IMG/VR virus record: IMGVR_UViG_3300025117_000031
Span: 62,001-126,000 of that record
Length of the DNA stretch: 64,000 nucleotides
Strand: one strand, 5' to 3'
Source: a virus
Shown piece by piece: positions 2,487 through 23,285 of the stretch. Every line of letters begins with the position of its first letter. The first letter of the stretch is position 1. The notes beneath the pieces are model-generated. The model searched no databases and was not told where the DNA came from. It was given only the letters and a program-made list of their open reading frames with translations. Both the position numbers and the translations under genes were made by a program.

Positions 2487-2494
2487 CGTTTTTC

Positions 2495-7291: not shown

Positions 7292-7581
7292 TTCCAATCC
7301 TTTACGTTAATCGCCTTATCGTCAATAAAAACATCGTAATAGGGTTTATTAAACTTTAGCTTCGTATACTTCACTCCCCAATATTTTAGTTGATTTTTTG
7401 TAACCTCTTGCCAGTTAATTCCCGTTAAAACTCCTCTAGATGTCCAAAAAACAATAGTGTTTCCTTCTTCGTACAGTTTGTTGACTTTTTTTATGTTTGT
7501 CTTTATCGGAGAGCTTTTGCTGTAGTCCCCGTTTTTGGGAGATTTGCATATTGTTTTGTCAATATCTATATAGATTATCAT
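7288..7581 (-). CDS. Small HAD-like phosphatase-type protein
   Basis: 97 residues if translation starts at the ATG at 7581, which forms an ATGA overlap with the preceding gene; a 106-residue form beginning upstream is possible but less likely. The HAD nucleophile motif is at the start (YIDIDKTIC, DxDxT). Motif II appears as FWTSRG, and the later acidic motif as YYDVFIDDKA. The protein is much shorter than full HAD phosphatases because it has no cap domain. Similar proteins occur in capsule and lipopolysaccharide clusters. A sugar-phosphate phosphatase role is inferred from motifs and neighbours. Confidence 0.78.
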   Translation of the reverse strand: MIIYIDIDKTICKSPKNGDYSKSSPIKTNIKKVNKLYEEGNTIVFWTSRGVLTGINWQEVTKNQLKYWGVKYTKLKFNKPYYDVFIDDKAINVKDWK

Positions 7582-8474
7582 AATGATAAAAACTTCTTTA
7601 CACGGCAAGTGTAAGTATGATTTTCTAGAACATTCTTTTTATTTTCTTGTTTGATTTCAAGCAGATTGGAGTCTGACATAAAACAATACTCTCTTGCATA
7701 GTCAATTAGCTGTTCCGTATTCCTAGAGGTTTTCACATCAGGGAAGAGACGTATAAGTTGTTTAATAGAATCACTTATCAATATTCCGTTAGCCCCAAGA
7801 GATTTAAAAGTTCTTTCATTTGTGTCAAATCCTAAAACTCTCTGATAAGCATCATGAACATTCAAAGCTACTTTGGAAGATTGTAATATGTAGTTTTCAT
7901 CATAGTTAGGAATATTTTGACCAATAAAAATACCACATCTAAGACCAGAGCTTTCAAATCTCTGCTTAACCTCTTTTAAAATATGCCTTTTTTCATCAAA
8001 GCCATTATTTGCCCATCCTCCAACAAAACAAACATCTAAATTATATTCTTCAACATCTAAACTTCGATAATTGATGTTATCAAAGGCTAGTGGAACTGTG
8101 TGTAATGGACTTCCCCAATTTCCATGGTAACTAAAATCGTCTCCGAAGCTCCATTTTACTAAATTTGGTAAATCTTTAATTTTATTAATTAAATCGACAG
8201 AGCAGGCAGAAATAAAATTAGGATGTCTTCCCCATGGCATATAAAAAGAAACAGGTTGTACAAAAAGAAAAGTCTTTCTGGAATTTTCTAAAGTACAAAT
8301 TGCAGATTCTTTCACATCTCCGTCTACAGCCATTAGATAATAATCTTTATCTTTTATGTCTTCGAGATTTTTGTATAAGCAAACCTCATAGCCCAAAGAT
8401 TTCCAAGCATTAGCATATCCTTCATAGATCCACAGTCCTGCACCAAGAGTAGGAACTTTAATATACACCTTCAT
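7578..8474 (-). CDS. CgeB-like glycosyltransferase (GT-B fold)
   Basis: 298 residues. The N-terminal half is Rossmann-like (KVPTLGAGLWIYEGYANAWK). The C-terminal half contains the CgeB/GT1-like signature: VALNVHDAY, then NERTFKSLGANGILISD, where a donor-binding Glu and a small-residue loop are expected. These match the C-terminal glycosyltransferase domain found in spore-coat CgeB and many phage and capsule clusters. It lies two bases from the next gene upstream and overlaps the HAD gene downstream. It is likely a glycan-building transferase; donor and acceptor are unknown. Confidence 0.75.
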   Translation of the reverse strand: MKVYIKVPTLGAGLWIYEGYANAWKSLGYEVCLYKNLEDIKDKDYYLMAVDGDVKESAICTLENSRKTFLFVQPVSFYMPWGRHPNFISACSVDLINKIKDLPNLVKWSFGDDFSYHGNWGSPLHTVPLAFDNINYRSLDVEEYNLDVCFVGGWANNGFDEKRHILKEVKQRFESSGLRCGIFIGQNIPNYDENYILQSSKVALNVHDAYQRVLGFDTNERTFKSLGANGILISDSIKQLIRLFPDVKTSRNTEQLIDYAREYCFMSDSNLLEIKQENKKNVLENHTYTCRVKKFLSL

Positions 8475-9389
8475 TTAAATTCTTTCTATCTGTCTCAAGA
8501 GAGACTTTAATCGAATTGTCGATTCGTGTTCTTTCATAAACCGTTGTTGTCCTGCAGTAGATATTTCTTTTATAAGTGATGGATTTTTCCCAAGAAAACT
8601 GATTTTATCGAATAGTTCTTCTTCCGTCTTAAATGTAAGTATTTCCTTTTCCAAATCATAAAGTTCTTCCAATCCAGGAGTGTATTCTGTTAATAGCAAA
8701 CTGCCAACAGCCGGAACCTCCATCATTCGAAGTTTCATTTGAGTCTTTTTAAGCGGATCGTTTTCGTTTATAGAGAAATTCAATCCACAAGCTGAAGAAG
8801 AATAAAAAAACATCATATCTTCGTAAGTTGTTCCATATATAACATTGAAATTAATTGATTTTTCTTGTAATTTTCTAAAGAAATTATCTCGTTGCTGGTT
8901 GATGTGGCCACAAAACCCTAAGAATCTTTCTTTCTTACATCTAACGCTAAAATCTGAACTTGTGTGCCACAGTCCTAAAAGAATGTTGTCATAGCCTAAA
9001 TCTTTATATTTCTGCACATATGAAGGTTCTGGAGTAGAACAACAAGTAAATTTCCAGCATTGACGAGAAGAAAAAGAATCAAATCTCCAAGTATCGTCAC
9101 AAAACCAATTGAAGGTTTTTATTTTACCTTGTATTGTAATGAACTCAATGGTTTCTAATTGTTCATATGGAGTAACAGAAAGATCTCCAGTAATACAAGA
9201 AAAAATTAAGTCTGGTTTAAATTCATCAACAACCTTTTCTAAGCTTTTCTCTTCTGGGTCAACAGTATCATAAAAATACACTTCGTGACCAAGCTTCAAA
9301 AGAGGGATGTAAGTGCTATAATACCCTGAATCTAATCTAATTAGGTTTCCTCTTCTGAGATATTTATTCGTTGCTAACAATATCTTCAT
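8475..9389 (-). CDS. CgeB-like glycosyltransferase (GT-B fold)
   Basis: 304 residues starting MKILLATNKYL. The first half is a nucleotide-fold domain with HEVYFYD and KPDLIFSCITGD. The second half contains CGLNFSINEND and MRMMEVPAVGSLLLTEY, followed by YDLEKEILTF, the typical CgeB C-terminal order in which a conserved Glu binds the donor. It resembles its downstream neighbour in plan but is not a close copy. Stop and start codons of adjacent genes touch or overlap by a base, showing one operon. Function is inferred from fold motifs. Confidence 0.77.
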   Translation of the reverse strand: MKILLATNKYLRRGNLIRLDSGYYSTYIPLLKLGHEVYFYDTVDPEEKSLEKVVDEFKPDLIFSCITGDLSVTPYEQLETIEFITIQGKIKTFNWFCDDTWRFDSFSSRQCWKFTCCSTPEPSYVQKYKDLGYDNILLGLWHTSSDFSVRCKKERFLGFCGHINQQRDNFFRKLQEKSINFNVIYGTTYEDMMFFYSSSACGLNFSINENDPLKKTQMKLRMMEVPAVGSLLLTEYTPGLEELYDLEKEILTFKTEEELFDKISFLGKNPSLIKEISTAGQQRFMKEHESTIRLKSLLRQIERI

Positions 9390-10231
9390 TATAGTTCTTT
9401 CTTAAAAAGAGAAATCGCATATTCTTTTTTGTTCTTCATTTCTTGAATTATTTCTTCTGGTTGTTTTATGTACCAAGGTTCATAAATTGCGCCTATGTTT
9501 TCATTCAAGAAGGGAACAACTCCCAACATCTTCGCTTCAACAACGACTCTAGAAAGAGTTTCTGGAGTTTTAGGCAAAAACATTAAATATTTATTCCAAG
9601 AGATTCTGATAAGTAAGTCAGACCAAGCACAAGGCTTTATAAGAACAATAGGTTCTCCTTTATTCATGCACCTGTCAATTGCCTCGTTAGTGTTTTTGTG
9701 GGCAATAGGAGAAATTAAAATAGATGTCGCCTCTTTCTTTTTATGTATTGGAAACTGTTCGTTTAAACTCTCAATCACTTCGAAAGCGGCATCGTGCCAC
9801 AGATTTCCGCCCAACACAACAAAATTAGACAAATTTAAGTTTTTGTAGATAATGTTTCTTTGAAAAGTCGACTGGCATAGAACAAAAGCGGCGTTCTTAT
9901 AGAATTCTAAATTAATAATATCTTTTGCTGGAACTATGAAATCTTTGTAAAGAGCTGGGTTCCTACTTTGGAGGAACTTGTAATCATGTTCGATAATAAA
10001 GTATTTACAAGGAACATTAATTTTGTCTTCTTCTGTAAGAAGAGCGAAATTGCCAAAAATGATACGGTCATAAGGGGTAAGAGAAGATTTAATTCCCGAA
10101 TAGGAGGAGGATTTTATTTTCTCTACAGAATACCCTGAATTTCTCAGTTCCTCAATTAGAACATCATTCGAGGCTTCTCCGCCACCGGGGTATTCTTCAT
10201 AAAAAATATCTGCTACAAAATATATGTTCAT
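9389..10231 (-). CDS. Glycosyltransferase, family 4-like
   Basis: 280 residues. The N-terminus NIYFVADIFYEEYPGGGEASND is the acceptor-side glycine-rich loop of GT4-type enzymes. The C-terminal half retains the donor-side pattern LMFLPKTPETLSRVVVEAKMLG followed by VPFLNE. The Glu in VVVEAK fits the position of the second glutamate of the EX7E motif, although the first Glu is in a divergent context (PETLS). The protein is shorter than usual GT4 enzymes (about 350-400), so it may be minimal. It starts in an ATGA overlap with the GDP-mannose dehydratase gene. Confidence 0.73.
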   Translation of the reverse strand: MNIYFVADIFYEEYPGGGEASNDVLIEELRNSGYSVEKIKSSSYSGIKSSLTPYDRIIFGNFALLTEEDKINVPCKYFIIEHDYKFLQSRNPALYKDFIVPAKDIINLEFYKNAAFVLCQSTFQRNIIYKNLNLSNFVVLGGNLWHDAAFEVIESLNEQFPIHKKKEATSILISPIAHKNTNEAIDRCMNKGEPIVLIKPCAWSDLLIRISWNKYLMFLPKTPETLSRVVVEAKMLGVVPFLNENIGAIYEPWYIKQPEEIIQEMKNKKEYAISLFKKEL

Positions 10232-12390
10232 TTTTTTAAAGCCTTTTCTACCATTTCACCGACTAATTCTTCAAAAGAAATCTCCGGATACCATCCGAGC
10301 TTATTGTGAGCTTTTGTACTGTTGCCAATTAAAACATGAACTTCTGCAGGACGATAAAACTTTGGGTCAATCCTAATGTGTTCTTCGTAGTTTAATCCAA
10401 CGCAGTTAAAGGCTTCTTTACAAAAATCACGAACAGAATAACAAGTCTCAGAAGAGATAATGTATTCTTCTGGAGTCTCTTGTTGAAGCATCAAATACAT
10501 TGCCCGAATGCAGTCCTTCGCGTGACTCCAATCTCTTTTAGCTTCAAGATTGCCAAGATACAAAAAATCTTGTTCATTGTTAGATATCTTTGCAACTGCT
10601 TGTGCAATTTTCTGAGTAACAAAATAAGGTCCGCGACGTTTCGATTCGTGGTTCATCAATATGCCCGAACAGGCAAACATATTATAAGATTCTCTATAAT
10701 TTATAGTAAGATAGTGACCATAAACTTTAGCTACACCATAGGGAGAGCGGGGATGAAATGGAGAATTTTCGTCATATGGAACACCGCCAGATAATCCTCC
10801 GAGCATTTCGCTGGTTGAATTTCCGCTTATTGCTGTTTTGCCGTTTCTTTCAATTAAGAAGTTATGATTATCTTTTATTTCCAAGCACCACACGTTTCCT
10901 TTATATTCAACCTCAGAGATCATATAAGAGTACAACTTGTTCTTTGGAGAAAAACTAACATTAATGTAAAATGCTTCTTTTGTAGATTTTATTTCCCGTA
11001 CTTTGTCTCCTTCTTTTATATAACTTTTCGTTAATCCAACGTTCTTAATAGAAGGATGATACCCGCATTTTTTTATAAGAAATAAAAGTTGTGAAGCCAA
11101 AATACTTGATACTGTGGTGATAGAAGCCCTTTCCCCAGACTTAGTTTTTCTTTCCGAACCATCTGAGTCTATTACTCCTTGCAATAGGGCTCTTAAATTA
11201 CCGACGGAATAAGAAAAGGCAAAATCTGGTATTTGTTTTTCATAAACATTTTTCCCGCATAAAGAAAATATTTTCGAAAGAGGCAAGCTGGTTAAAGTTA
11301 TTGTCATTTTTTGTTTTGAATATTCTAGCTTGTTCTTATCTAAAATTTTCAATAAAGAACTTCTGGCGGGATCTTTTTCGGGTATCGCAAAAAGAATGGT
11401 ATGAGAAGTTAAATATCTTTCTCCAGTGGTCGGAGGAGTCCCTTCAAAATTAAATTCAGCCGTGTAACGACCTGTTTTTTTATCTCTTCTTTTTTCATTT
11501 TCTTTAAATGGATAACTTCTTAGTTTTTTACCAGAAGCCTTATATCCGTCTCCAATATATAAACCAAGTAAATAAAAAAGGTCTTTTGAAGGCAAAGAAG
11601 TGATCAAATTCTTATGAAAACAATTTGGTACAGAGAGTTCTTGTAATGGTACGAGATCAGATAATTTAATATTTTCCTTTTTATCTTCCAACTGTGGAGT
11701 AATAAAGGGCATGCTTAGATGACTTTTTCTTTCAAAAGAAAAAAGATTCTTTATATTTTCTGCTCTACAACTAACAATGTTATTATTGTCATCTTTAAGG
11801 ATTACTCTGTGGTTTGGTGTAATTAGTTGTGAAATTCTTTTCCCCTCTAAAGAAATCATCTTTCCATCATAGGGAAATTTATATATTTTTAGTATTTGTT
11901 TTTTTTCCATTTGATGAGTTTGTTCATTAAAAGAAAAAACATCGTCTCCAACTTTTAATTCGGTGAACGGCTTTATCCCCGAAGGGGTTACAACGTTGGT
12001 TTTTTCGTCATGACACGCTTGATAGAACTTAGTTTTTTTCTCGTTACCACTTTGTCTGATGGACTCCAAACAATTCAGAACACCAGCCCCTGTGGCACTT
12101 AAGGTATGAAATGGTTCTTTAAAAGATGTTCCAACTTCTGATTGGGCGGCAAGATTATACATCTCATCGGGAGAAATGGACTTAACAAGAGAAATCATTG
12201 AAGATAAATCTGTTACATCCCCCTCAACAATTTCAAAATTCTTTTCCCCAACAAGATGAGACACATTTCCAAGACCATTCGAACTGGTTCTTCTTTTTAA
12301 TCCATAAACTTTATAGTCTTTTTCTAAAAGAAGTTCTGAGAGGTAGGAACCATCTTGTCCTGTTACTCCGGTAATCAAAGCCTTTTTCAT
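10228..12390 (-). CDS. gmd: GDP-mannose 4,6-dehydratase precursor containing an intein
   Basis: 720-residue precursor, of which 321 residues are extein and 399 are intein (residues 126-524). The extein N-part has the NADP site GVTGQDGSYL and LKRRTSS; the C-part has the catalytic Tyr551 and Lys555 (SPYGVAK) and HESKRRG. Joining FYQA to STSEMLGG restores the active-site segment with catalytic Thr526 and Glu528. GMD converts GDP-D-mannose to GDP-4-keto-6-deoxy-D-mannose, the precursor of fucose, rhamnose and perosamine-type sugars. It is the first gene of the leftward operon, with GGAG just upstream of the ATG. The extein is slightly shorter than most bacterial GMDs. Enzyme activity depends on splicing, because the intein separates the two halves of the catalytic site. 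Confidence 0.93.
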   Translation of the reverse strand: MKKALITGVTGQDGSYLSELLLEKDYKVYGLKRRTSSNGLGNVSHLVGEKNFEIVEGDVTDLSSMISLVKSISPDEMYNLAAQSEVGTSFKEPFHTLSATGAGVLNCLESIRQSGNEKKTKFYQACHDEKTNVVTPSGIKPFTELKVGDDVFSFNEQTHQMEKKQILKIYKFPYDGKMISLEGKRISQLITPNHRVILKDDNNNIVSCRAENIKNLFSFERKSHLSMPFITPQLEDKKENIKLSDLVPLQELSVPNCFHKNLITSLPSKDLFYLLGLYIGDGYKASGKKLRSYPFKENEKRRDKKTGRYTAEFNFEGTPPTTGERYLTSHTILFAIPEKDPARSSLLKILDKNKLEYSKQKMTITLTSLPLSKIFSLCGKNVYEKQIPDFAFSYSVGNLRALLQGVIDSDGSERKTKSGERASITTVSSILASQLLFLIKKCGYHPSIKNVGLTKSYIKEGDKVREIKSTKEAFYINVSFSPKNKLYSYMISEVEYKGNVWCLEIKDNHNFLIERNGKTAISGNSTSEMLGGLSGGVPYDENSPFHPRSPYGVAKVYGHYLTINYRESYNMFACSGILMNHESKRRGPYFVTQKIAQAVAKISNNEQDFLYLGNLEAKRDWSHAKDCIRAMYLMLQQETPEEYIISSETCYSVRDFCKEAFNCVGLNYEEHIRIDPKFYRPAEVHVLIGNSTKAHNKLGWYPEISFEELVGEMVEKALKK
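10819..12015 (-). mobile_element. Intein with LAGLIDADG endonuclease inside gmd
   Basis: 399 residues running from Cys126 (CHDEKTNVVTPSG) to Asn524, with Ser525 as the +1 nucleophile. Block B is visible as TPNHRV (residues 191-196) and block F as DNHNFLIE. Two dodecapeptides, LLGLYIGDG (274-282) and LLQGVIDSDG (402-411), each keep an acidic residue, so the homing endonuclease may be active. The splice C-terminus reads ISGN; the penultimate residue is Gly rather than the usual His. The insertion point lies immediately before the catalytic TSE of GMD, a conserved site of the kind inteins prefer. Confidence 0.93.
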
Positions 12391-12662: not shown

Positions 12663-14043
12663 GGAACTTAAACTGTTAACCTCTCAGTTAAAAGAATTTA
12701 AATCTTCTCTTCTTATTAAGAACAACGAATTTACAAAAAAATCAACACATTCTACTTCGTGTGTTATATTTATAATGTGTCGAAACGTCATTCTACAACT
12801 TCTGAAAAAAGCCTCCCTATAACTATCCTCAGCCAACGTATTCGGCTCGTTCCAAATAACATCCAAACAACCTTTTTCGAACGTTGTGCCGGTGCGTCTC
12901 GTTTTGTCTACAACTGGGGATTGGGCCGTTGGAAAACTCAATACGAAGCTGGGGGGAAGCCCTCTTGGATTAGCCTTAACTCCGAGTTGAATGCCTGCAA
13001 AAACACCGAATTTCCTTGGATGGCAAAATTGCCGTGGGCTGTTGCTGCAACGGCATTGTCCAATCTCGGCAATGCTTTCTCCAACTTCTTTCGTCGTGTT
13101 AAGTCTGGCCAAAAGCCCGGTTATCCCCGTTTCAAGTCGAAGAAGCGGAACAAAGCAGCCTTTGCCATCGAGGGACGAGCCCTTCAGTTTGACGGCAGAA
13201 GAGTCAAACTCCCCAAGCTTGGTTGGGTCCGCACCCGACAAGAGGTAAGATTTCCTGGTAAAATCCTGTCCGCTCACTTCACGAAACATGCCGGTCATTG
13301 GTACGTCTCGATTCAAGTTCAAGTCTCCGACTCCTGGTCCTATCCCCATCGCTGCGAAACCCAAGAAGCGGTTGGAGTGGACCTTGGGCTCCGAGACCTT
13401 GCCGTGCTCTCCACGGGAGAACGGGTCGGGGCTCCACGCATTCTGCGTGCTCATGAAACCCGACTGCGACGACTCAACAAGGAAATGTCTCGTCGCGTCA
13501 TAGGAGGGAAGAATTGGCAGAAGACCAAAATGAAGCTTGGTCGGCTGCATGAACGGATTTCCAACATCCGCAAAGACGTAACGCATAAGCTTACCGCTCG
13601 GCTGGTCCGAGACTTTCGTCGGATTGGAATCGAGGACTTGAACGTCAAGGGGATGATGGCAAATCACCATCTTGCAAAGTCGGTTGCAGATGCTGCCTTG
13701 TCGGAAATCAGGCGTCAGCTCACGTATAAGGCTCCGCTTGCCGGCAGCGAAATCATCGTTGCTGACCGCTGGTTCCCTTCTTCCAAGCTGTGTTCCGACT
13801 GCGGAACAAGACGAGAAGGACCGTTGCCCTTGTCCATCCGAGAATGGGTTTGTGAGGCTTGTGGGGTTGTCCACGACCGAGACATCAACGCAGCCATTAA
13901 TCTTAGAACCGCCGCCCTGGCGGGGATAGCCTGCTGCCAAGAAAGCTCTGGTTCTGGTCTTGCGACCAAAACGAAACTTTCTCTTGGGCAGGAATTGAGC
14001 AACCGTGTTAACTAATGGGTTCATGGTTTAAGTCTCGAAGGGG
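12663..14043 (+). mobile_element. TnpB-only IS605/IS1341-like element, copy 1
   Basis: A GC-richer island in AT-rich DNA holding a tnpB gene and no tnpA. Comparison with copy 2 (33671-35054, inverted) places the right end at a shared sequence GGTTTAAGTCTCGAAGGGG ending at 14043. The left end is near ACTTAA at about 12663-12675. The left-end palindrome that is perfect in copy 2 is degenerate here, with only about five pairs formed around CTGTTAACCTCTCAG. Short inverted similarity links the ends (gacttaa and ttaagtc). Exact borders are estimates from the alignment of two copies. Lack of tnpA means any movement would need a transposase in trans. Confidence 0.8.
12759..14015 (+). CDS. tnpB: TnpB RNA-guided nuclease (IS605 OrfB)
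   Basis: 418 residues from a GTG at 12759; a second GTG at 12777 (giving MSKRHSTT) is equally plausible. The RuvC-like active site is complete: Asp208 in VGVDLG, Glu292 in GIEDLNVKG and Asp375 in HDRDINAAINL. A zinc ribbon has Cys345/348 and Cys365/368 (CSDCG, CEACG). The N-terminal helical domain has FVYNWGL and the SGQKPGYPRFKSK region typical of TnpB. TnpB proteins are RNA-guided DNA endonucleases, ancestral to Cas12, using a guide copied from DNA next to the element's right end. Base composition is clearly richer in G+C than the flanking phage genes, suggesting acquisition from another genome. A long overlapping frame on the other strand is a composition artefact. Confidence 0.93.
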   Translation: MCYIYNVSKRHSTTSEKSLPITILSQRIRLVPNNIQTTFFERCAGASRFVYNWGLGRWKTQYEAGGKPSWISLNSELNACKNTEFPWMAKLPWAVAATALSNLGNAFSNFFRRVKSGQKPGYPRFKSKKRNKAAFAIEGRALQFDGRRVKLPKLGWVRTRQEVRFPGKILSAHFTKHAGHWYVSIQVQVSDSWSYPHRCETQEAVGVDLGLRDLAVLSTGERVGAPRILRAHETRLRRLNKEMSRRVIGGKNWQKTKMKLGRLHERISNIRKDVTHKLTARLVRDFRRIGIEDLNVKGMMANHHLAKSVADAALSEIRRQLTYKAPLAGSEIIVADRWFPSSKLCSDCGTRREGPLPLSIREWVCEACGVVHDRDINAAINLRTAALAGIACCQESSGSGLATKTKLSLGQELSNRVN

Positions 14044-14084: not shown

Positions 14085-16463
14085 ATGAATCTTAATGAAA
14101 CAGAAAAGATGTTACAAGAACTTTATTCCTTCTGTAAAAAGGAGTTAGGATTTAAGAGAGGCATCTCAGCTCTTAATTTTATACAGTCTGAGGCTAATGC
14201 TAAGAAATTATTAGGGAAAACAGCTAACTACGATCCGGAGACAGAAGAGATAAATATTTATGTTACCGGAAGACATCACAAGGACATAGCAAGATCATTT
14301 GCACACGAGATATGCCATCATTGGCAAAACGAAGAAAAAAGATTACCCCTCTCAGGACTTAATTCTCAGTCTTATGCTCAAGACGATCCCCAGCTTAGGA
14401 AGGCTGAAGAAGAAGCTTATCTAAGAGGGAACATGCTTTTTAGGGACTGGGAAGACTCTCAGAAGAAAGCTCTTGTAGAAATAATCCTCCGCGAACGAGG
14501 AAGGCTTCAGTTAAATGAGGGAGGTGCGGCTGGCCACATGAACCACCTCTACGACGATCCGCTTCTTACATTTAAGAAAATTAAGGAAATATTAATTGCT
14601 GCCTCTTCGGGAAAAATTGAAGGTACAGAAAAGGTGGATGGGGTTAATCTTTTTGTTTCTTTCGACTTGCAGAAAAATGTTGCGGTTGGGGCTAGAAACA
14701 AAGGGGAGTTGGAAGGTGGAGGTCTAACTGCGGAAGATTTCTTTGAAAAGTTTGCCGAGCACAGCAATCAAAACTTAAAAACCGTAGTTTCTAATGCATT
14801 GAAATCATTCGAAGAACTAGCTATTTCTTTAACCCCTCAAGAAAAGATTCAGTTCTTCGGAGAATACCCAAAGAAATTATTTTACAACTCCGACATCGTT
14901 TCTCCTGAAGCTTCAAATGTTGTTGATTATAATAAGAAATTTATAATTCTTCATCGAAACGGGCATATTGTGTCTGACATTTTGGCAAAAACGGTCTCGG
15001 ATGTGAATTTGGAAAATAATGTCTTGGAGTTGACAAAAAAAGTAGACGAACTTGGGAAGACAAAAATAAAAGATTATGACATGAAGATTTCGGCTTTAAG
15101 AAATCTTAAGGCCCTATCGGACAGAAAACCCCTTGAGATTGCTTTAAAGAGAATTGAAGATATTTTACATGACTCAGGGGCCTCGGAAAGCAGCACTGTA
15201 TCTAATTTCCTTTTTTTGAGGCTGACCCCAGCGGTTGAAGAATATATATCCGATTTATCGCAATCAAAGAAAGAACAAATAATCCGAAGAATTGCGGGAG
15301 AGAAAATTAATCTAAGAGAGCTTAAAAAAGATTTAAATCCTCGTCAATTATCGCAAGCAAACGAACTTCTTTCAAGAGCAAACGATCTTAGAAAAAGAGC
15401 AATTCTTCCGCTGGAAAAAACAATTCATGACTTTTCTGTTGAAATTCTTAAAAGTTTAGATTCTTTGTTTGTTTTGGACGATAAGAAAGAGCTGGCAAGA
15501 ATAAGAGAGAAAGTCTCTCAGGCTATTGAAAAGATTCAGAATTCAGGCAATGTTGAAGCAATCAAGCAACTGCGTAGACAGATGGAAAAATTGGAGTCTC
15601 TTGAGAACATTTCTTCTGCAACCGAGGGCTTTGTCTTCAGTTTTGATGGCAAGACATATAAATTTACTGGGAATTTTGCTCCAGTGAATCAGATTTTAGG
15701 ACTGTTTAAGTATGGTAGGGGTAGTCTTTCCCCAATGGTATTGGAAGAAGTAAAGGGGAAGATAAATTATGTCTTAATCCCTGGTGCATTTAAGCCGCCT
15801 CATCGTGGACATTTGCATATGCTAAAACAATATGCTGAAATCGCGGATAAGGTGGTTGTGTTTATTTCCAATAGGCCCAGGGAGGCTCCGGGCGGTAGAG
15901 CAGTGGGCGCGGATGTAGCGGTCACTCTGTTTAAAAAATATATTCAAGTGTCCGGGCTTGAGCAGAAGGTGGAGATTAAGATTGCAGATGCGGTCAGTCC
16001 GATCGTAAGCATGTTGGAATTTATTTCTTCTTTGCCAAAAAATACAAATGTTGTTCTAGGAACTTCGGGAAAAGGGGAAGATTCGAAAAGATTTGAGAAT
16101 TTTGAAAAATATGCACCAGAAGGTGTTAAGCTGCTTTATGGGAAGGACTGGTCTGTGGACCCCCTTCGAGAGAAAAACATGGCATTTTCTTCCACTTTGA
16201 TGAGAAAGGCAATTGCGAATGGAGATGAAAACTCTTTTGCTTCTTTCTTGCCGGATGAATTAAAAACCGATTCGGAAGAACTTCTTAAAATTGTGGCGGA
16301 TATGACAAAGACCGAGATATTGGAATTTTCTGGAATGGCTATGGGAGCTGTGACGGGGGCTTTATCTGGGTCAAGTGTTGAAAAAGACGAAGAAAACACT
16401 AAAAATATGCTAATTAGAGAGGTAATGGAATACTTTAATTCGAGGATCCTGAATGAAAACTAG
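14085..16463 (+). CDS. Three-module protein: HExxH peptidase-like, KxDG ligase-like, HxGH nucleotidyltransferase
   Basis: 792 residues. The N-terminal part has a zincin motif HEICH at residues 74-78 in an AHEICHHW context. A second module carries KVDG at residues 183-186 (TEKVDGVNLFVSF, then ARNKGE), resembling motif I of the ATP-grasping ligase/nucleotidyltransferase superfamily. A mainly helical middle region follows. The C-terminal third is a cytidylyltransferase-like domain with HRGH at 573-576 (PGAFKPPHRGHL), then NRPRE, and FSSTLMRKAI near 701-710, equivalent to the ISSTxxR motif. Nucleotidyltransferases of this type make NAD, CoA or CDP-compounds. The combination suggests an RNA/NAD-related or virion-delivered enzyme, but no substrate can be assigned. 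It has a good ribosome-binding site and overlaps the next gene by 11 bases. Confidence 0.75.
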   Translation: MNLNETEKMLQELYSFCKKELGFKRGISALNFIQSEANAKKLLGKTANYDPETEEINIYVTGRHHKDIARSFAHEICHHWQNEEKRLPLSGLNSQSYAQDDPQLRKAEEEAYLRGNMLFRDWEDSQKKALVEIILRERGRLQLNEGGAAGHMNHLYDDPLLTFKKIKEILIAASSGKIEGTEKVDGVNLFVSFDLQKNVAVGARNKGELEGGGLTAEDFFEKFAEHSNQNLKTVVSNALKSFEELAISLTPQEKIQFFGEYPKKLFYNSDIVSPEASNVVDYNKKFIILHRNGHIVSDILAKTVSDVNLENNVLELTKKVDELGKTKIKDYDMKISALRNLKALSDRKPLEIALKRIEDILHDSGASESSTVSNFLFLRLTPAVEEYISDLSQSKKEQIIRRIAGEKINLRELKKDLNPRQLSQANELLSRANDLRKRAILPLEKTIHDFSVEILKSLDSLFVLDDKKELARIREKVSQAIEKIQNSGNVEAIKQLRRQMEKLESLENISSATEGFVFSFDGKTYKFTGNFAPVNQILGLFKYGRGSLSPMVLEEVKGKINYVLIPGAFKPPHRGHLHMLKQYAEIADKVVVFISNRPREAPGGRAVGADVAVTLFKKYIQVSGLEQKVEIKIADAVSPIVSMLEFISSLPKNTNVVLGTSGKGEDSKRFENFEKYAPEGVKLLYGKDWSVDPLREKNMAFSSTLMRKAIANGDENSFASFLPDELKTDSEELLKIVADMTKTEILEFSGMAMGAVTGALSGSSVEKDEENTKNMLIREVMEYFNSRILNEN

Positions 16464-17247
16464 AGAAGAATTTATAAAAGAACTTCAAGAAGAAAAACTG
16501 CTTCGGGAGACTGTGGATAAAATCGCTCAAAATAGGATTTTTGAGCAGGTTTCCGAAGAAAAGAAAAAGATTATAGAAAGACATAAAGAAAGAGCACTAC
16601 TAAAAGAGTGCGTCCGGAAGATAATTTCCGAAGCCAAAACACCTCCGCCTGCGCATCAATCAACAGGAATTAATATTCTTTCGGAACTTCTAAGAAAAGT
16701 TCTGCCTATTCTAGAGAGAAACTTCAGAAAACTGACAACAGATCAGTTTCAAAGAAAGTCTTTTCGAGCCCATATTATAAATGGGTGCAAGAAGTCCCTG
16801 GAGAGAGCATATGTGGAATCAGAAGCTCCCGAGTCATCAGAACAGGCTCAGGCAGAGGTAGATAATGCTATGGGAGACGGAGAGGGCATGAAGCAACCTT
16901 CTGCTGAACCCGAGCCTTCGATGCCTTCGGAAAATCCTCTTAATGAGCTTGATATGCCAGGTGACGAACAAAAGTTTATTGATATTCGTCCGAAAGACAA
17001 AAAACCTACGGACAAGAAAACAAACATCAAAGACAAAGAAGATTTTGCCGTTGATGGGGAAGATGAAACAGGAAAGAATTTGGCGTTTGAAGTGTTCCAT
17101 CAAATAGAAAAAACGATTCTTGAGTCGTTTAGACTTTTGTCCAACGATGAAGACAAGAAAATATTTGTTGAATATCTTTTAACAAACTTGAAAATGTATT
17201 TTGATTTGTTTGAGGACAATCTTCAAACAATGCCGAACAGTAAATAA
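16453..17247 (+). CDS. Hypothetical acidic protein, possibly virion- or head-associated
   Basis: 264 residues, not recognised. The N-terminal 60 residues are charged and likely form a coiled coil (EEFIKELQEEKLLRETVDK). The helical motif LLKECVRKIISEAK then recalls the short helical tags at the N-termini of proteins encoded after 58754. Residues 130-205 are a low-complexity acidic/Pro/Lys linker. The C-terminus is helical again (IEKTILESFRLL). It starts inside the last codons of the upstream three-module gene, so expression is coupled. A structural or assembly role is only a guess. Confidence 0.65.
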   Translation: MKTREEFIKELQEEKLLRETVDKIAQNRIFEQVSEEKKKIIERHKERALLKECVRKIISEAKTPPPAHQSTGINILSELLRKVLPILERNFRKLTTDQFQRKSFRAHIINGCKKSLERAYVESEAPESSEQAQAEVDNAMGDGEGMKQPSAEPEPSMPSENPLNELDMPGDEQKFIDIRPKDKKPTDKKTNIKDKEDFAVDGEDETGKNLAFEVFHQIEKTILESFRLLSNDEDKKIFVEYLLTNLKMYFDLFEDNLQTMPNSK

Positions 17248-17507: not shown

Positions 17508-17951
17508 GTGACCAGAGGAAGAAGAACTAGGATCTGGAGATTCGGTAAAAGAATCGAAATTAAAAAGAAGGTAACTTTTCTAGAGAGAGCAAGGCTTAAC
17601 GGAGTTCTTACTAGAGAAAACGAATCTTTTTTGAGAACTACTGCGCTAGAGGATCTTATTTTATTGAAACTAGAAACAGCGGCAGAAATCTCAGATTATA
17701 GGCCTGCTGGCTTTGGTTTTTATAGAATGGTTAGATATGCGATTATAGACGCCTTGTATCGTTATGCTAGAGTTGCGGTTGATACTGCAAAAGAGGCATC
17801 AGATTTATTAGGAGTTAGAAAGAACTCTCTCTTGAGGCTTTTTGAAGCATCGGGAGTAAAAAAGGAAACTATTTCAAAAAATGAAAAATACTTACGTAAT
17901 CGACACCAACGTATTTTTGACGAACACAAACTCTATCGTGACGTATTCTGA
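17508..17951 (+). CDS. Hypothetical basic helical protein
   Basis: 147 residues from a GTG start. The N-terminus is Arg/Lys-rich (TRGRRTRIWRFGKRIEIKKK). The rest is predicted helical, with YRMVRYAIIDALYRYARVAVDTA and a possible helix-turn-helix-like segment ASDLLGVRKNSLLRLFEASG. A DNA-binding or transcription-related role is possible but not shown. Its 3' end overlaps the PhoH start by about 70 bases, long for this genome, so either the true stop region is shared or the PhoH start could be slightly downstream; the PhoH PIN motif argues for the annotated start. Confidence 0.55.
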   Translation: MTRGRRTRIWRFGKRIEIKKKVTFLERARLNGVLTRENESFLRTTALEDLILLKLETAAEISDYRPAGFGFYRMVRYAIIDALYRYARVAVDTAKEASDLLGVRKNSLLRLFEASGVKKETISKNEKYLRNRHQRIFDEHKLYRDVF

Positions 17952-19209
17952 AAAGAATGATGTTGTAATCCCGTTTAAAGTTTTAGAGGAAATAGACAAA
18001 CATAAAAAAAGGTTAGATACTGTTGGTCTTAACGCTAGAAAATTTATTAAAGCAATTGATGAGATTAGAAACAAAGGAAGTCTTGTAACTGGGGTTTCCA
18101 TTGGGGAAAATAAAGGGAAGATATTTGTTAAATTTGCCAATAGAGCCACAGTAATTCCTGGAGCTATAACAGAAGACCCCGACAATCAGATTATTTCCGT
18201 AGCTCTTCAAGAACAGCAGTTTGGTAAGAAAGTTATTTTGGTTACTCGCGACATTAATATGCGGGTAAAATGTGATGCTTTAAACCTAGCGTGCGAAGAC
18301 TATCAGCCGGGTAAAGAGGTATCTAGTCTTTCAGAATTATTTTCTGGGGTTCGAGAGGTTTTGGCTAAGGATTCTTTTATTGATGACTTCTATTGTGATA
18401 AAGCCGTGGTGCTGCCGGCAGAGCTTTCAACGGAGTTGTGTCCTAATACTTTCCTTGTTGTAAAATCAGAAACAGATGAAAAGAAAAGTTTTGTTTGTAG
18501 ATATATGGGGAAAGAAAAAGTTCTTAAAAAGGTCCAAACCAAATGGAAGGGAGATGAATTAAGCGGAATTCGCCCTAAGAACAAAGAACAAATATTTGCT
18601 ACTGATCTTCTTTTGGATCCTTCAGTAGAGCTTGTTTCTATGGTTGGTCAAAGCGGAAGTGGAAAAACTCTTTTAGCTCTCGCTGCTGGGTTAAGGCTTT
18701 TAGAAGAAGAGAAATATAAAAAGCTGATTGTTACTAGACCTGTGGTGCCTATGGGGGGTAAAGAAAAAGACATAGGGTTTTTGCCTGGATTGGCTGAAGA
18801 AAAAATGTCTCCTTGGATGCAACCGATTGTAGATAATTTAAACTTTCTTCTTGGAGATCGAGAAACATTAAATGATTATTTGGAAAAGGGAATAATTGAA
18901 ATTCAAATAATGACATATATCAGAGGTCGTAGCGTCCCTAATAGTTATTGGATTATTGATGAAGCTCAGAATTTAAATTTTCACGAAACAAAAACTCTTC
19001 TTACTAGACCAGGAGACAATACCAAGATTGTTATTACAGGGGACCTTCGGCAAATAGATGACATTCATCTTAATAGTTTGACAAGTGGTTTAACTCATGC
19101 CATAGAAAGATTTAAGTCTTATGATCTTTCAGGGCATGTTACTTTGGTCAAGGGGGAAAGGAGTCGGTTGGCCAGTATAGCCGCTGAAATATTCGAAGAA
19201 GAGAATTAA
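17881..19209 (+). CDS. phoH: PhoH-family ATPase with N-terminal PIN domain
   Basis: 442 residues, the length of the two-domain YlaK/PhoH2 type. The PIN ribonuclease domain has acidic residues Asp8 (YVIDTNVFL), Asp101 in EDPDNQI and Asp124 in VTRDINMR. The ATPase domain has Walker A GQSGSGKT at 256-263 and Walker B WIIDEAQN at 357-364, then TGDLRQID. PhoH2 proteins act as RNA helicase/ribonucleases; phoH is common in large marine phages and sometimes linked to phosphate stress. Both active sites appear intact, unlike the short phage PhoH forms that have only the ATPase. It directly precedes the zincin gene. Confidence 0.92.
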   Translation: MKNTYVIDTNVFLTNTNSIVTYSEKNDVVIPFKVLEEIDKHKKRLDTVGLNARKFIKAIDEIRNKGSLVTGVSIGENKGKIFVKFANRATVIPGAITEDPDNQIISVALQEQQFGKKVILVTRDINMRVKCDALNLACEDYQPGKEVSSLSELFSGVREVLAKDSFIDDFYCDKAVVLPAELSTELCPNTFLVVKSETDEKKSFVCRYMGKEKVLKKVQTKWKGDELSGIRPKNKEQIFATDLLLDPSVELVSMVGQSGSGKTLLALAAGLRLLEEEKYKKLIVTRPVVPMGGKEKDIGFLPGLAEEKMSPWMQPIVDNLNFLLGDRETLNDYLEKGIIEIQIMTYIRGRSVPNSYWIIDEAQNLNFHETKTLLTRPGDNTKIVITGDLRQIDDIHLNSLTSGLTHAIERFKSYDLSGHVTLVKGERSRLASIAAEIFEEEN

Positions 19210-19210
19210 G

Positions 19211-19876
19211 TTGTTTAACTATCACACACAGGTTTCGGCGGAAGACAGAAGAATTTTGTTTCTTGGAGACATTCCGGTACATCTTTTTAACGATGCTGTC
19301 TCGAAGCAAAAAGTCATAGAAGATTTTATTTCCAAAGTTAACAAAAGCATCAAAGGCAAAATTCTTTCTTTTATTCGGAGTATTCGGATAGGGTATTTTG
19401 CTGCCCTTAGAGATAAGGGATTTGACGCTGTATATTACAATGGCGTTGTGTTTATGAATGCTGAGATGAAAGATGGTGAGTCTTTTTATCGCGCTTTTGT
19501 ACACGAGCTTGGACATGCAGTTGAAGAATCCTTTCAAGAAATGGTGTATGAAGATTCTAATTTGATTCACGAGTTCATGGTAAAGAAGGCTAAGCTGCTG
19601 GAAATATTAGAAAATCACTACAACTTGGCCTTTTCAAAGGAAGATTTTTCTCAGATGCACACGACGTCGAGGATGGATGAGGTGTTTGAAGAAATTGGTT
19701 ACTCGAAATTAACTACTTTTTCTGTTGGTATTTTCGTATCTCCCTATGCGGCTTATTCGATACGAGAGTATTTTTCTAGAGGGTTTGAAGACTTTTTTGC
19801 TTCTGATGAAAAAAGAAGTCAACTTCGTGATATTTCTCCTGTATTGTACGAGAAGATAGAATCCTTATTTGTTTAG
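19211..19876 (+). CDS. Zincin-like metallopeptidase
   Basis: 221 residues from a TTG start one base after the PhoH stop. A clear zinc motif HELGH lies at residues 98-102 (FVHELGHAVEESF), with a possible third ligand in the later EYFSRGFEDFFA segment (186-197), the arrangement of gluzincin-like peptidases such as the anthrax-toxin lethal-factor-like fold. There is no signal peptide or membrane segment, so it is likely cytoplasmic or virion-packaged. The substrate is unknown. It could process a phage or host protein. Confidence 0.74.
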   Translation: MFNYHTQVSAEDRRILFLGDIPVHLFNDAVSKQKVIEDFISKVNKSIKGKILSFIRSIRIGYFAALRDKGFDAVYYNGVVFMNAEMKDGESFYRAFVHELGHAVEESFQEMVYEDSNLIHEFMVKKAKLLEILENHYNLAFSKEDFSQMHTTSRMDEVFEEIGYSKLTTFSVGIFVSPYAAYSIREYFSRGFEDFFASDEKRSQLRDISPVLYEKIESLFV

Positions 19877-19884
19877 GAAAAAAC

Positions 19885-20667
19885 TTGACAGAAGTACAAA
19901 AAGAAAAAACTATATCATTTTCTTCATTTTCTCTTTATCATGAATGTCCATACAAATGGAAGCTTTCATATATTGACGGCAAGAAGTTTGCTGGGAACAT
20001 TTTCTCTAGCTTCGGCAAAGCGGTTCACAGCTCTGTCGAGAAAAAGATAAAAGTTAGAGAGTGTGACGAGGTTAAGACCTTTCTTGAGGAATTCAAGAAG
20101 TCTCTGAAAGAACTTCCAAAAGAAGAAAAAAACAAGATTCCCGTTGAGCTGATAAAGGAATTTAGGCTTCAGGGGGAGAAGATTGTACCTTTAGTTTTGG
20201 TAGCTTTGGATAAGAAATATCCTGGATTTGAACTGGTGGACATAGAGAAAGAATTAAAAGAAGAGATAGAACTTGGATTTAAATTTGTTGGGTATGTAGA
20301 TATTATCATAAAATATCAAGATAAATATTATATTCTTGATTTTAAGACTTGCTCTTGGGGTTGGGATGCCGAAAAGAAGACGGATAAAATTGTAACTTAT
20401 CAGTTGGCTTTTTATAAGAATTTCTTTGCAAGACAGAAAAATATTCCTCTTGCAGACATAGAGACGGGATTCGTTCTCCTTAAAAGAATAGCAAAGAAGA
20501 ACGAAGTTGAATTTGTTAGAGTTTCTTGTGGAGAAAAAAAGATCAAAAATGCTACAAAGATGTTATACAATACTTGTTTGAATATCAACTCTTCCAATTT
20601 TCCTAAAAATAGGTCGAGTTGCACGAGATGTCAGTTTCACAATACTGACGACTGTAAAAAGTGGTGA
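19885..20667 (+). CDS. PD-(D/E)XK nuclease, Cas4/RecB-like with Fe-S cysteines
   Basis: 260 residues; a TTG start at 19885 follows TAGGA. The N-terminal SFSSFSLYHECPYKWKL is typical of Cas4/AddB-type nucleases. The catalytic core shows Asp139 (VGYVDIII), Asp152 and Lys154 (ILDFKT), then the conserved Gln/Tyr helix TYQLAFYKNFF. Four cysteines, Cys21 and three in the C-terminal SSCTRCQFHNTDDCKKW segment, are arranged as in Fe-S nucleases of this family. These enzymes degrade or process single-stranded DNA ends. It is probably a recombination or DNA-processing nuclease of the phage. Confidence 0.88.
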   Translation: MTEVQKEKTISFSSFSLYHECPYKWKLSYIDGKKFAGNIFSSFGKAVHSSVEKKIKVRECDEVKTFLEEFKKSLKELPKEEKNKIPVELIKEFRLQGEKIVPLVLVALDKKYPGFELVDIEKELKEEIELGFKFVGYVDIIIKYQDKYYILDFKTCSWGWDAEKKTDKIVTYQLAFYKNFFARQKNIPLADIETGFVLLKRIAKKNEVEFVRVSCGEKKIKNATKMLYNTCLNINSSNFPKNRSSCTRCQFHNTDDCKKW

Positions 20668-20678
20668 AAGGGAATTTA

Positions 20679-23285
20679 ATGGTAAAGAAGAAGATTTTAA
20701 CTATTTCGGATTCTCCTCTTGGGACTTCTGGTGTGGGCATTCAGGCGAAGCTTTTTATTGAGGCGCTTCTTAAAACAGGAAAATACTCTGTTTATAGCTT
20801 TGCTGGAGCAATTGAACACAAACAATATAATCCAATTCGATTTAAAGAGTGGGGTGAGGACTGGACAATTTTCCCGGTGAAGAATTTTGGAACTTCCGAG
20901 ATGATTCGCTCCGCTATTTATACTGAAAAGATTGACATGGTTTGGTTTATGGGGGATCCGAGATTCTTTTATCCGCTGTTTGCGAATGCTTTAGAGATGC
21001 GGTCTCTTGTCCCTATGGTTTTTTATACGATTTGGGACAATTATCCAATTCCGAAATTTAATGTTTATCATTATGGTTCTGTGGACGCGATTGTTTCTCA
21101 GTCTCTTGTGACAAAAGATATTATTGAGCAAGTGGCTCCTGAAAATGTTTTAAAATATCACATTCCACTTACTGTAGATACCAAAGTTTTCAACAAAAGC
21201 CAAGACCCAAATATTTTTGAAATTAAAAAGCAAATGGGGGGTTCTAACAATAGGTTTGTATTCTTTTGGAATAATCGGAATGCGAGGAGAAAGCACCCTG
21301 CGACTTTGATGATGTGGTTTAAGAAGTTTGCTCAGCAAGTAGAAGCAAAGTATGGCAAGGAAAAAGCTCCTATTCTTGTTATGCACACAAATCCCATTGA
21401 TCCGGCAGGGCACGACCTTCATGTTGTTTTTAGAGATTTTGAATTGGATGGGTACGTTAAAATTAGTAATCATGCAGAGCGTCCTCTTACAAGGGAACAA
21501 ATAGCTCTTTTGTACAATGCTGTAGATTGTACAGTAAGTATCTCTGATGCGGAAGGGTTTGGCCTTTGTTTAGGTTCTGATTCTTTGGTTAAGACTGAAA
21601 GTGGGTATTGCGAAATAAAAGACGTTAAAGTTGGCGAGCGGGTGTTTTGCAGAAACGGCGAGACACAGAAGGTAACGAAACTTTTTAATAGGGAAGCTCC
21701 CACTAAAACTTATTTAATAGGTGGCATTGAAACAAGGATTACCGATGAACATCCTGTTTTTTCTCTTAAGAGAAATAGAAGAAGTTTTGATTCAGAAGGA
21801 CTTCACAAAGAGGAACCAAACTGGAATAAAGCAGGGGAGTTAGCAGTGGGTGATTTTATTGCATTTCCGAAGCCAAAGATGCAATATAGTCAAAGGGAAT
21901 ATTTTGATTTATGTGAATATGTTGATAAAGAAAAACTCGAATGGGATGAAGAATTTGTGTGGGAGAAAATGGGATATTCTCCTCACAAAGACGGAGATAG
22001 CTTAGAAGATATTCGAGCGCGGCTTGGATGTTCTAAGCATGAAGCGGAACAGGTTAGAAGGATTATTCTTGGTAATGCTTCTGATAAATATAAAAAGGGT
22101 TCTTTTAAGATAAAAGAACTTTTAGAAAAATACAGAGCGTTGTGCGGCACAACAAACATTGTGGATGGAAGGAAAAAAATAAAAAGATATATTAAAAATA
22201 GTCTTGAGTTGTCAGAGATAATTGGGTGGTATGTAGCTGAAGGAAGCTCTTTGGGTTCTAGAGGGGTGGAGTATTCTTTAAACGTCAAAGAGCTTCCTGT
22301 TGCAAAAAGACTTCAAGAACTTTTTAGAACAGTTTTTGGGGCAGAGGGGGTTGTGAAGTCGAGAGAAGATAAAAATGTTTCTTCTTATATTTGCGCTTCT
22401 GGGATTCTGGCATCTTTTTTTGAAAAAGAATGTGGGAAACACGCTGGGAATAAGTTTCTTAATAAAGACTTTATTTTTAGCACCTCTTCTGCAAGGATTC
22501 TTTTGTACTCTTTATTTTCAGGGGACGGCTCTTTTGGTAAAAATATAATAACGTATTCAACAGTTAGTCGTAAATTAGCTTACGAAACTAGGGATCTTCT
22601 TTTATCTATGAATATTTTTTCGTCTTTAGTGAGGCGTAAAAAGATAAAAACTACGAATGGGGAATATACCTATACTCTTGTAATTTCCGGAAGACAAGAC
22701 TCTAGAATTAGAAGATTTTTTGAGATTGAAAGTTCCATTCCTTCTTTTTCCAGAAAGAGGGGAACTTCGATTATAGAAAAGGAAGATATGTTTTTGGTTC
22801 CTATTCGTTCTGTTAAACAGAACGAAACAGAAAACGTTTATGATATCGAAGTGGAAAAGGAGCACAACTTTATTTCAGGAGGCATATTGGTTCATAATTG
22901 TGTTGGAGAAAGTTTAGCCTCAGCCACTCCTGTTATTGTAACGAAGACGGGGGGGATGCAAGAGCAGGTTACTGATGGGCAAAATGTTTTTGGAGTTTCA
23001 TTAGAACCAAAGAGCAGAGTCTTGGTCGGTTCTTTAGATGTTCCTTACATTTACGAAGATCGTGTTTTGGAAGAAGATTTTATTGATGCTTGTTGGAAGA
23101 TGTATGAAATGCCAAAAGAGGAAAGAGATAAATTGGGTTTTATGGGAAGACAGCACATTGAGTCCAATTATGGGATTGATGTTTTTACTTCCAAATGGCA
23201 AGAAACAGTTGACGATATTGTGCAAAAGTGCGGGTCTTGGGGAGAGAGAAAAAACTTTAAGAGATGGAGTATGGAAAAGCTGTGA
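20679..23285 (+). CDS. Family 4 glycosyltransferase precursor containing an intein
   Basis: 868 residues from the ATG at 20679, chosen because AAAGGGA lies five bases upstream; two GTGs just before are less likely. The extein (424 residues) is a GT-B enzyme beginning KKKILTISDSPLGTSGVG, with the donor-domain segment DAEGFGL and then, after the intein, CVGESLASATPVI. The EX7E motif is formed only after splicing: the first Glu is residue 292 and the second follows the intein. GT4 enzymes are retaining transferases using nucleotide sugars. The next two genes may also relate to this pathway, the second being another GT4. The intein (residues 297-740) is described separately. Confidence 0.9.
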   Translation: MVKKKILTISDSPLGTSGVGIQAKLFIEALLKTGKYSVYSFAGAIEHKQYNPIRFKEWGEDWTIFPVKNFGTSEMIRSAIYTEKIDMVWFMGDPRFFYPLFANALEMRSLVPMVFYTIWDNYPIPKFNVYHYGSVDAIVSQSLVTKDIIEQVAPENVLKYHIPLTVDTKVFNKSQDPNIFEIKKQMGGSNNRFVFFWNNRNARRKHPATLMMWFKKFAQQVEAKYGKEKAPILVMHTNPIDPAGHDLHVVFRDFELDGYVKISNHAERPLTREQIALLYNAVDCTVSISDAEGFGLCLGSDSLVKTESGYCEIKDVKVGERVFCRNGETQKVTKLFNREAPTKTYLIGGIETRITDEHPVFSLKRNRRSFDSEGLHKEEPNWNKAGELAVGDFIAFPKPKMQYSQREYFDLCEYVDKEKLEWDEEFVWEKMGYSPHKDGDSLEDIRARLGCSKHEAEQVRRIILGNASDKYKKGSFKIKELLEKYRALCGTTNIVDGRKKIKRYIKNSLELSEIIGWYVAEGSSLGSRGVEYSLNVKELPVAKRLQELFRTVFGAEGVVKSREDKNVSSYICASGILASFFEKECGKHAGNKFLNKDFIFSTSSARILLYSLFSGDGSFGKNIITYSTVSRKLAYETRDLLLSMNIFSSLVRRKKIKTTNGEYTYTLVISGRQDSRIRRFFEIESSIPSFSRKRGTSIIEKEDMFLVPIRSVKQNETENVYDIEVEKEHNFISGGILVHNCVGESLASATPVIVTKTGGMQEQVTDGQNVFGVSLEPKSRVLVGSLDVPYIYEDRVLEEDFIDACWKMYEMPKEERDKLGFMGRQHIESNYGIDVFTSKWQETVDDIVQKCGSWGERKNFKRWSMEKL
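21567..22898 (+). mobile_element. Intein with LAGLIDADG endonuclease inside a glycosyltransferase
   Basis: 444 residues beginning Cys297 (CLGSDSLVKTESG) and ending His739-Asn740, with Cys741 as the +1 residue: a canonical class 1 splice chemistry. Block B is TDEHPVF, and block F is NVYDIEVEKEHNFIS. Two dodecapeptide-like motifs, IIGWYVAEG and LLYSLFSGDG, carry the acidic residues expected for an active homing endonuclease. It splits the EX7E catalytic motif of the transferase. It is not closely similar to the gmd intein by eye apart from family motifs. Confidence 0.93.

What the first reader, a model, noticed from the sequence alone, without database searches (positions are those of the whole stretch)
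14085..16463. Single protein joining a zincin motif, a KxDG ligase-like motif and an HxGH nucleotidyltransferase domain
HEICH (74-78), KVDG (183-186) and HRGH (573-576) with a later SSTxxR-like motif are each typical of different enzyme classes, in one 792-residue chain. The order suggests an enzyme that handles a nucleotide or a protein-linked cofactor. I know of no characterised protein with this exact order.
Basis: partly seen in the sequence, partly recalled or inferred. Interest (0 to 1): 0.7.

Follow-up and report, generated by a model that had tools for sequence, protein, structure and literature searches.

The report
Three-enzyme protein probably packed in phage heads
This T4-like phage makes one protein that joins a zinc protease, an RNA-ligase-like enzyme and an NAD-synthase-like enzyme, and conserved cut sites between the parts suggest it is trimmed inside the virus head and injected with the viral DNA; a large, almost unstudied set of aquatic phages carries the same parts.

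Summary
In detail: HEICH (74-78), KVDG (183-186), HRGH (573-576) and SSTLMR (702-707) lie in one 792-aa ORF, and none is chance. AlphaFold2 gives three confidently folded domains with disordered linkers: a HExxH...E zincin, a covalent nucleotidyltransferase (RNA-ligase superfamily) with a ~200-aa helical insert, and an NMNAT/PPAT-type HxGH adenylyltransferase. The ligase-like domain has at least 587 relatives in IMG/VR and no Pfam, PHROG or PDB family of its own. About 40 of the 80 best loci keep the order KxDG then HxGH in one chain. In 32 loci the zincin is a separate gene close upstream. It is fused in the window and in two other phages, at separate places on the tree. A fourth, unknown module (window ORF 16453-17247) follows in 46 loci. 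The new clue is an [LI]xE|GG site directly before the ligase domain (49 of 57 extended proteins; shuffles 2.3). Without an extension the ORF starts M-GG (23 cases). The genome encodes a T4 gp21-family protease, which cuts after [LI]xE. NMNAT-like proteins are published components of cyanophage virions. Best reading: a capsid-packaged, gp21-processed multi-enzyme for nucleic-acid end repair and NAD metabolism at infection onset. Catalysis and packaging are inferred.

The parts
14085..16463 (+). ORF, 792 aa: zincin + KxDG covalent nucleotidyltransferase (RNA-ligase-like) + HxGH adenylyltransferase
14085..14504 (+). zincin-like metallopeptidase domain, residues 1-140; HEICHH 74-79, third ligand E108
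   Evidence: separate gene upstream of the ligase gene in 32 loci
14511..14525 (+). residues 143-147 LNE|GG: predicted prohead-protease cleavage site at the zincin/ligase joint
   Evidence: [LI]xE directly before GG in 49 of 57 extended relatives, shuffles 2.3; pLDDT <50 at 138-150
14520..15722 (+). ligase-like covalent nucleotidyltransferase domain, residues 146-546; motif I KVDG 183-186, ARNK 203-206, motif III position D270, motif IV EGFVF 514-518, motif V YKFTG 525-529; helical insert about 310-505
15741..15749 (+). residues 553-555 LEE|V: possible second protease site in the ligase/NTase linker
   Evidence: [LI]xE in 31 of 39 such linkers against 13.0 in shuffles; low pLDDT at 555-557
15753..16319 (+). 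HxGH nucleotidyltransferase domain (NMNAT/PPAT-like), residues 557-745; HRGH 573-576, SSTLMR 702-707
16320..16460 (+). C-terminal low-confidence helical tail, ends ILNEN
16453..17247 (+). fourth module (D4), 264 aa, unknown fold, overlapping ORF; CTS-like LLKECVRKIISE|A before the conserved domain; fused to the C-terminus of the ligase-NTase protein in 16 of 46 loci

Best explanation
The ORF is a modular polyprotein of a T4-like phage. SHOWN by sequence and prediction: three separate, conserved enzyme domains with disordered linkers; a conserved [LI]xE|GG site exactly at the start of the ligase-like domain; a gp21-family prohead protease and a gp23 major capsid protein in the same genome; a recurrent module set zincin, ligase-like, HxGH, D4, either fused or as neighbouring genes. 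INFERRED: the protein enters the prohead with the scaffold core, the prohead protease cuts after LNE-145 and possibly LEE-555, and the freed ligase-like domain (mature N-terminus GGAAGHMNH) and HxGH domain stay in the head and are injected with the DNA. In the cell the ligase-like domain would take AMP onto K183 and seal nucleic-acid ends, RNA such as cleaved tRNA more likely than DNA. The HxGH domain would adenylylate a mononucleotide, most likely NMN to NAD+. Together they would repair early damage or metabolic depletion caused by host defence. The zincin would act as a separate, injected or head-internal protease.
For: Domains. Ligase fold: the 15 best PDB hits of the model are all RNA/DNA ligases or a capping enzyme; in BFVD its phage homologues are followed mostly by RNA ligases; 33 of 80 members weakly match PF09414 RNA_ligase, best E 6e-4. 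NTase: PPAT/NMNAT by HMM and fold. Processing: E precedes GG in 53 of 57 extended proteins, full [LI]xE in 49 (shuffle mean 2.3, maximum 8 of 57); the other 23 start M-GG, where Met removal would give the same N-terminus. Linker sites 31 of 39 against 13.0, none of 2000 shuffles as high. All three zincin-ligase joints carry LxE|GG although the fusions lie at separate places on the tree. Own genome: Peptidase_S77 E 4e-30, Gp23 E 7e-64 with LLRE|A near the expected site. T4 gp21 cuts after L/I-x-E and trims the injected protein Alt at both ends (PMC9026906). NMNAT-like/cytidylyltransferase proteins are detected by mass spectrometry in virions of S-CBWM1, S-SZBM1, S-SCSM1 and S-CREM2 (PMC10665884, PMC9602691). 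The S-SRM01 homologue has a T4-type targeting start, MKNFHQFITE|A, and lies just downstream of a zincin gene. RNA repair: P-loop kinase domains fused in a sister clade; in this phage a separate P-loop kinase, a PolyA_pol/HD (CCA-type) enzyme and a canonical RNA ligase.
Against: No activity or virion detection is known to me for this protein or for any relative that contains the ligase-like domain. The virion evidence concerns NTase homologues whose ligase part was not examined or is absent, and in S-SRM01 the gene lies among replication genes. [LI]xE is a short motif; over the whole window protein its count (13) equals chance (13.5), so the case rests on positional conservation. Foldseek E-values for the ligase fold are weak (best 0.0076). 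The window enzyme has D instead of E in motif III. The genome already has a canonical RNA ligase. NMN as substrate is not established: PPAT and NMNAT score equally.
Confidence: 0.45

Rival explanations
1. The ligase-like domain is a DNA ligase delivered with or made for the phage genome: it seals nicks or ends of the injected or packaged DNA rather than RNA.
For: No DNA ligase family (PF01068, PF01653) was found in the 154-kb record although controls rang; African swine fever virus DNA ligase is among the top fold hits; in a sister clade the gene lies next to terminase and portal genes.
Against: Most sequence and fold matches are RNA ligases; by the DSSP elements the C-terminus ends with one helix after motif V, so there is no room for an OB-fold there; the record may be incomplete, and host ligases can serve phages.
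Confidence: 0.22
2. NAD+-fuelled pair: the ligase-like domain takes AMP from NAD+ and the fused HxGH domain turns the released NMN back into NAD+ with ATP, so the protein recycles its own cofactor. The conserved GHMxHLYDN segment before motif I would bind the NMN part.
For: KxDG and HxGH domains are fused or adjacent in most loci of the clade; HxGH is NMNAT-like; H154 is invariant and H151 nearly so.
Against: No NAD-ligase adenylation family match in the genome and no recognisable Ia domain; nearest folds are ATP-dependent ligases; [LI]xE sites in the linker suggest the two domains are separated. The geometry of the GHMxH segment was not examined.
Confidence: 0.08
3. The protein is processed by its own zincin (as proposed for polyvalent proteins), not by the prohead protease, or acts uncut in the cytoplasm as a late enzyme.
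For: Zincin is the hub domain of polyvalent proteins and is proposed to autoprocess them (PMC5512222); the zincin is fused or close upstream here.
Against: The site matches gp21 specificity and a gp21-family gene is present; the same LxE|GG joint occurs in HPFDD-clade proteins whose fetched loci show no zincin.
Confidence: 0.2
4. The zincin-ligase fusion is a recent accident or assembly artefact and the modules normally work apart.
For: In most loci the zincin is a separate gene.
Against: Three complete fusions at separate places on the tree, each a clean ORF with an LxE|GG joint.
Confidence: 0.05

Closest known systems
Polyvalent proteins of phages and conjugative elements (J Bacteriol 2017, PMC5512222)
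   Same: Multi-domain enzyme proteins with a zincin hub, encoded near virion genes in phages, thought to be delivered and cut into units
   Different: In the passages found, RNA ligases are mentioned as phage genes but not as polyvalent domains; here a ligase-like domain and an NMNAT-like domain are joined and the cut sites match a gp21-type protease
T4 internal head proteins Alt and IPI-III (PMC9026906)
   Same: Propeptides ending in [LI]xE, cut by gp21, products injected with DNA
   Different: Different enzymes; packaging of this protein is not shown
RNA ligases of the covalent nucleotidyltransferase superfamily (T4 Rnl1, archaeal Rnl3, Naegleria/Deinococcus type, PF09414)
   Same: Motif I KxDG, motif IV EGxVF, motif V lysine, fold
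   Different: About 200-aa helical insert between motif III and IV, GGxxGHMxH[LP][YF]D[DN] segment before motif I, no significant sequence match to PDB
Cyanophage cytidyltransferase/NMNAT-like virion proteins (phrog_395, phrog_3041; S-SCSM1, S-CREM2, S-CBWM1)
   Same: HxGH domain similar to residues 557-745; found in virions; T4-type targeting start and upstream zincin gene in S-SRM01
   Different: S-SRM01 and S-CREM2 proteins are too short or lack the KxDG domain; S-PM2 A0A0M6VVW4 carries only a very remote ligase-like part
NadM/NadR NAD+ salvage enzymes of phages (PMC9503650)
   Same: HxGH adenylyltransferase
   Different: No Nudix or NadR kinase domain; fused instead to zincin and ligase-like domains

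Membership tests
Covalent nucleotidyltransferase / RNA ligase superfamily | Motif I KxDG with catalytic lysine | tested here: met
   K183, D185, G186 invariant in 80 of 80
Covalent nucleotidyltransferase / RNA ligase superfamily | Motif III acidic residue, motif IV EGxxx, motif V lysine on strands | tested here: met
   E at 270 in 78 of 80 (D in the window), E514-G515 and K526 invariant, on predicted strands
Covalent nucleotidyltransferase / RNA ligase superfamily | Fold | tested here: met
   15 best PDB hits all in the superfamily, but best E 0.0076; BFVD E<0.001 to phage homologues, then mostly RNA ligases
Covalent nucleotidyltransferase / RNA ligase superfamily | Pfam PF09414 gathering score | tested here: not met
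   14.9 bits against 27; sub-threshold in 33 of 80, so not filed in this Pfam family
Covalent nucleotidyltransferase / RNA ligase superfamily | Enzyme-AMP formation and sealing | not testable with these tools
   needs a bench assay
NAD+-dependent ligase | Ia domain / PF01653 | tested here: not met
   no hit in own genome, controls rang in 11
HxGH nucleotidyltransferase superfamily | HxGH and SxTxxR, Rossmann-like fold | tested here: met
   PF01467 E 4.6e-6 above cut-off, motifs, fold TM 0.6-0.7 on the target
NMNAT (NadM) equivalog | Curated equivalog score | tested here: not met
   TIGR01527 17.3 against 181 bits; substrate open
Zincin metallopeptidase | HExxH plus third ligand on a following helix | tested here: met
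   H74, E75, H78, E108 invariant in 35 sequences; helices 65-83 and 102-141
T4 gp21 substrate / internal head protein | [LI]xE at a propeptide junction with a gp21-family protease in the genome | tested here: met
T4 gp21 substrate / internal head protein | Presence in the virion in cut form | not testable with these tools
   only NMNAT-like/cytidylyltransferase homologues are reported in virions
Polyvalent protein | Two or more distinct effector or enzyme domains with zincin, near late genes | tested here: met
   baseplate and tail genes downstream in the window (judged by eye)

The most novel reading that the evidence does not exclude
A virion-delivered repair machine that fuels itself: the ligase-like domain uses NAD+ as AMP donor and the fused NMNAT-like domain rebuilds NAD+ from the NMN released, so that injected phage proteins can seal cleaved tRNA or DNA even when host defence has altered the nucleotide pool.
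Probability: 0.06. Interest if true: 0.88.

Novelty: new variant of a known kind. Interest (0 to 1): 0.62.

Why it matters
If true, repair and NAD enzymes act from the first moment of infection, before any phage gene is expressed, which bears on how phages survive tRNA-cutting and NAD-depleting defences. Most predictions can be tested with virion mass spectrometry and standard ligase assays.

Tried and rejected
PDB sequence search with the ligase and zincin profiles gave only chance hits. PHROGs has no family for the window's zincin, ligase domain or D4. Bacterial and archaeal genomes gave only six MAG contigs, not examined further. T4 late promoter TATAAATA is not enriched in the window (6 found, 4.3 expected), so late expression could not be supported that way. 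C-terminal [LI]xE-like tails are not enriched (11 of 39 against 27% background, both counted as [LIV]xE). Whole-protein [LI]xE count equals chance. PADLOC has no match for the protein. The idea that the ORFs starting M-GG are miscalled longer proteins was rejected for at least seven loci with a stop codon directly upstream. No paper on the combination was found in the library.

Full report
Observation. The ORF 14085-16463 (+) encodes 792 aa without interruption in a 153,920-base virus record. Pfam finds only the HxGH part above its cut-off (CTP_transf_like, E 4.6e-6); RNA_ligase is sub-threshold (E 0.03).

Relatives. The central domain had only three full-length matches among 50,697 phage records (LR756508, LR756500, Microcystis phage Mel-JY01). 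Six contigs of cellular genome assemblies matched, all MAGs, so the family is mostly or wholly viral. Invariant residues are those expected of a covalent nucleotidyltransferase: E182-K183-x-D185-G186-x-N188, R204, E514-G515, F518, Y525-K526; the motif III glutamate is in 78 of 80 and is D270 in the window.

Folds. AlphaFold2 gives the ligase-like domain mean pLDDT 92, pTM 0.89. Its fifteen best PDB matches are all RNA/DNA ligases or a capping enzyme, with weak E-values (0.0076 to 0.55) that I attribute to the large helical insert. Among viral models it finds phage 'cytidyltransferase-like' proteins, including S-PM2, followed mostly by annotated RNA ligases. The full-length model has three confident domains joined by disordered linkers at 138-150 and around 543-558; the HxGH domain matches PPAT and NMNAT structures equally. 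The zincin is HExxHH plus E108, with weak matches of many members to metallopeptidase families.

Module logic. About 40 loci keep KxDG then HxGH in one ORF. The reverse order occurs in L006, L003, L001 and much of the HPFDD clade; there some members also carry a P-loop kinase domain. In L004 the two are adjacent genes. The zincin is a separate gene close upstream in 32 loci and fused in the window, L026 and L151, which lie at separate places on a tree, at least two changes being forced by well-supported branches. Starting from the zincin instead, 67 loci with enough downstream sequence show ligase in 25, NTase in 39 and D4 in 46. D4, window ORF 16453-17247, is fused in 16 and separate in 30 of 46 loci, with [LI]xE, mostly as LRxxIRxLIxE, just before it in 45 of 46. 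PhoH follows further downstream in L035 and L045; in the window ORF 17881-19209 is PhoH-like by eye.

Cut sites. Fifty-seven relatives carry sequence before the ligase domain; 53 have E immediately before GGxxGHM and 49 the full [LI]xE (shuffles 2.3 plus or minus 1.5, maximum 8). Twenty-three have no extension and begin M-GG; removal of the initiator Met before Gly (general knowledge) would leave the same N-terminus. Linkers between ligase and HxGH contain [LI]xE in 31 of 39 (shuffles 13.0 plus or minus 2.9, none of 2000 as high). T4 gp21 cuts after L/I-x-E, and the injected protein Alt is trimmed at both ends (PMC9026906). The window's genome encodes a Peptidase_S77 (gp21) homologue (E 4e-30) and a Gp23 capsid protein with LLRE|A just before the part that aligns with mature T4 gp23. 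In cyanophages NMNAT-like proteins are repeatedly found in virions by mass spectrometry (PMC10665884, PMC9602691), and the S-SRM01 homologue begins MKNFHQFITE|A and follows a zincin gene. Caution: the total number of [LI]xE in the window protein equals chance; the argument is positional conservation. The relatives are also not independent of each other, so the shuffle figures measure strength of the pattern, not a number of independent events.

Mechanism. I conclude that the most likely role is a capsid-packaged polyprotein, cut by the prohead protease and injected. The ligase-like domain would seal RNA (or DNA) ends; the HxGH domain would make a dinucleotide cofactor, probably NAD+. RNA repair is favoured by the fold, by kinase fusions in the sister clade, and by a P-loop kinase (58857-59369), a PolyA_pol/HD enzyme (62255-63541), a canonical RNA ligase and four predicted tRNA genes elsewhere in the phage. 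The absence of any recognised DNA ligase keeps a DNA role open. Catalysis, substrate and packaging remain untested for this protein.

Novelty. The nearest concept is the polyvalent protein (PMC5512222); the nearest enzymes are RNA ligases and NMNATs. No family model and no paper in the searched library covers the ligase-like domain or the combination. I rate it a new variant of a known kind.

Noticed in passing
window 12759-14015 (+), 33699-34955 (-); L097 635-1978: Near-identical TnpB-like ORFs in the window, and a further ORF in L097 (G000 146001-153920) resembling the overlapping antisense ORF of these copies; one copy sits directly upstream of the three-domain gene
   Followed up: no
window 10228-12390 (-) and 20661-23285 (+): Intein-like insertions in a GDP-mannose-dehydratase-like gene and in a glycosyltransferase gene
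   Followed up: no
window 19211-19876 (+): Second zincin, HELGH, weakly matching the ATLF metallopeptidase domain family (E 1e-6); right after a PhoH-like gene
   Followed up: no
window 58857-59369 (+) and 62255-63541 (+): P-loop kinase (AAA_33) and PolyA_pol/HD enzyme whose N-terminus MFEKWQHFLKE|SKQ looks like a T4-type targeting sequence
   Followed up: partly
L048 2654-3664; similarly sized ORFs at the same place in L037, L043-L046, L049, L052: Adenylosuccinate-synthetase (PurZ-like) gene (E 1e-82) directly upstream of the zincin in L048: possible 2-aminoadenine DNA in these phages
   Followed up: partly
G000:C1:34803-35486 (-), L101 1420-2751: Canonical PF09414 RNA ligase of 443 aa, with an N-terminal region resembling Naegleria/Deinococcus type, next to a VWA-like protein
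   Followed up: partly
L090 (CP070664.1, WOR-3 MAG chromosome): The ligase-like family in a 2.8-Mb MAG chromosome: prophage or binning chimera
   Followed up: no
window 1413-10231 (-): Block that looks like sugar-nucleotide and sialic-acid-type synthesis plus glycosyltransferase genes in the phage
   Followed up: no
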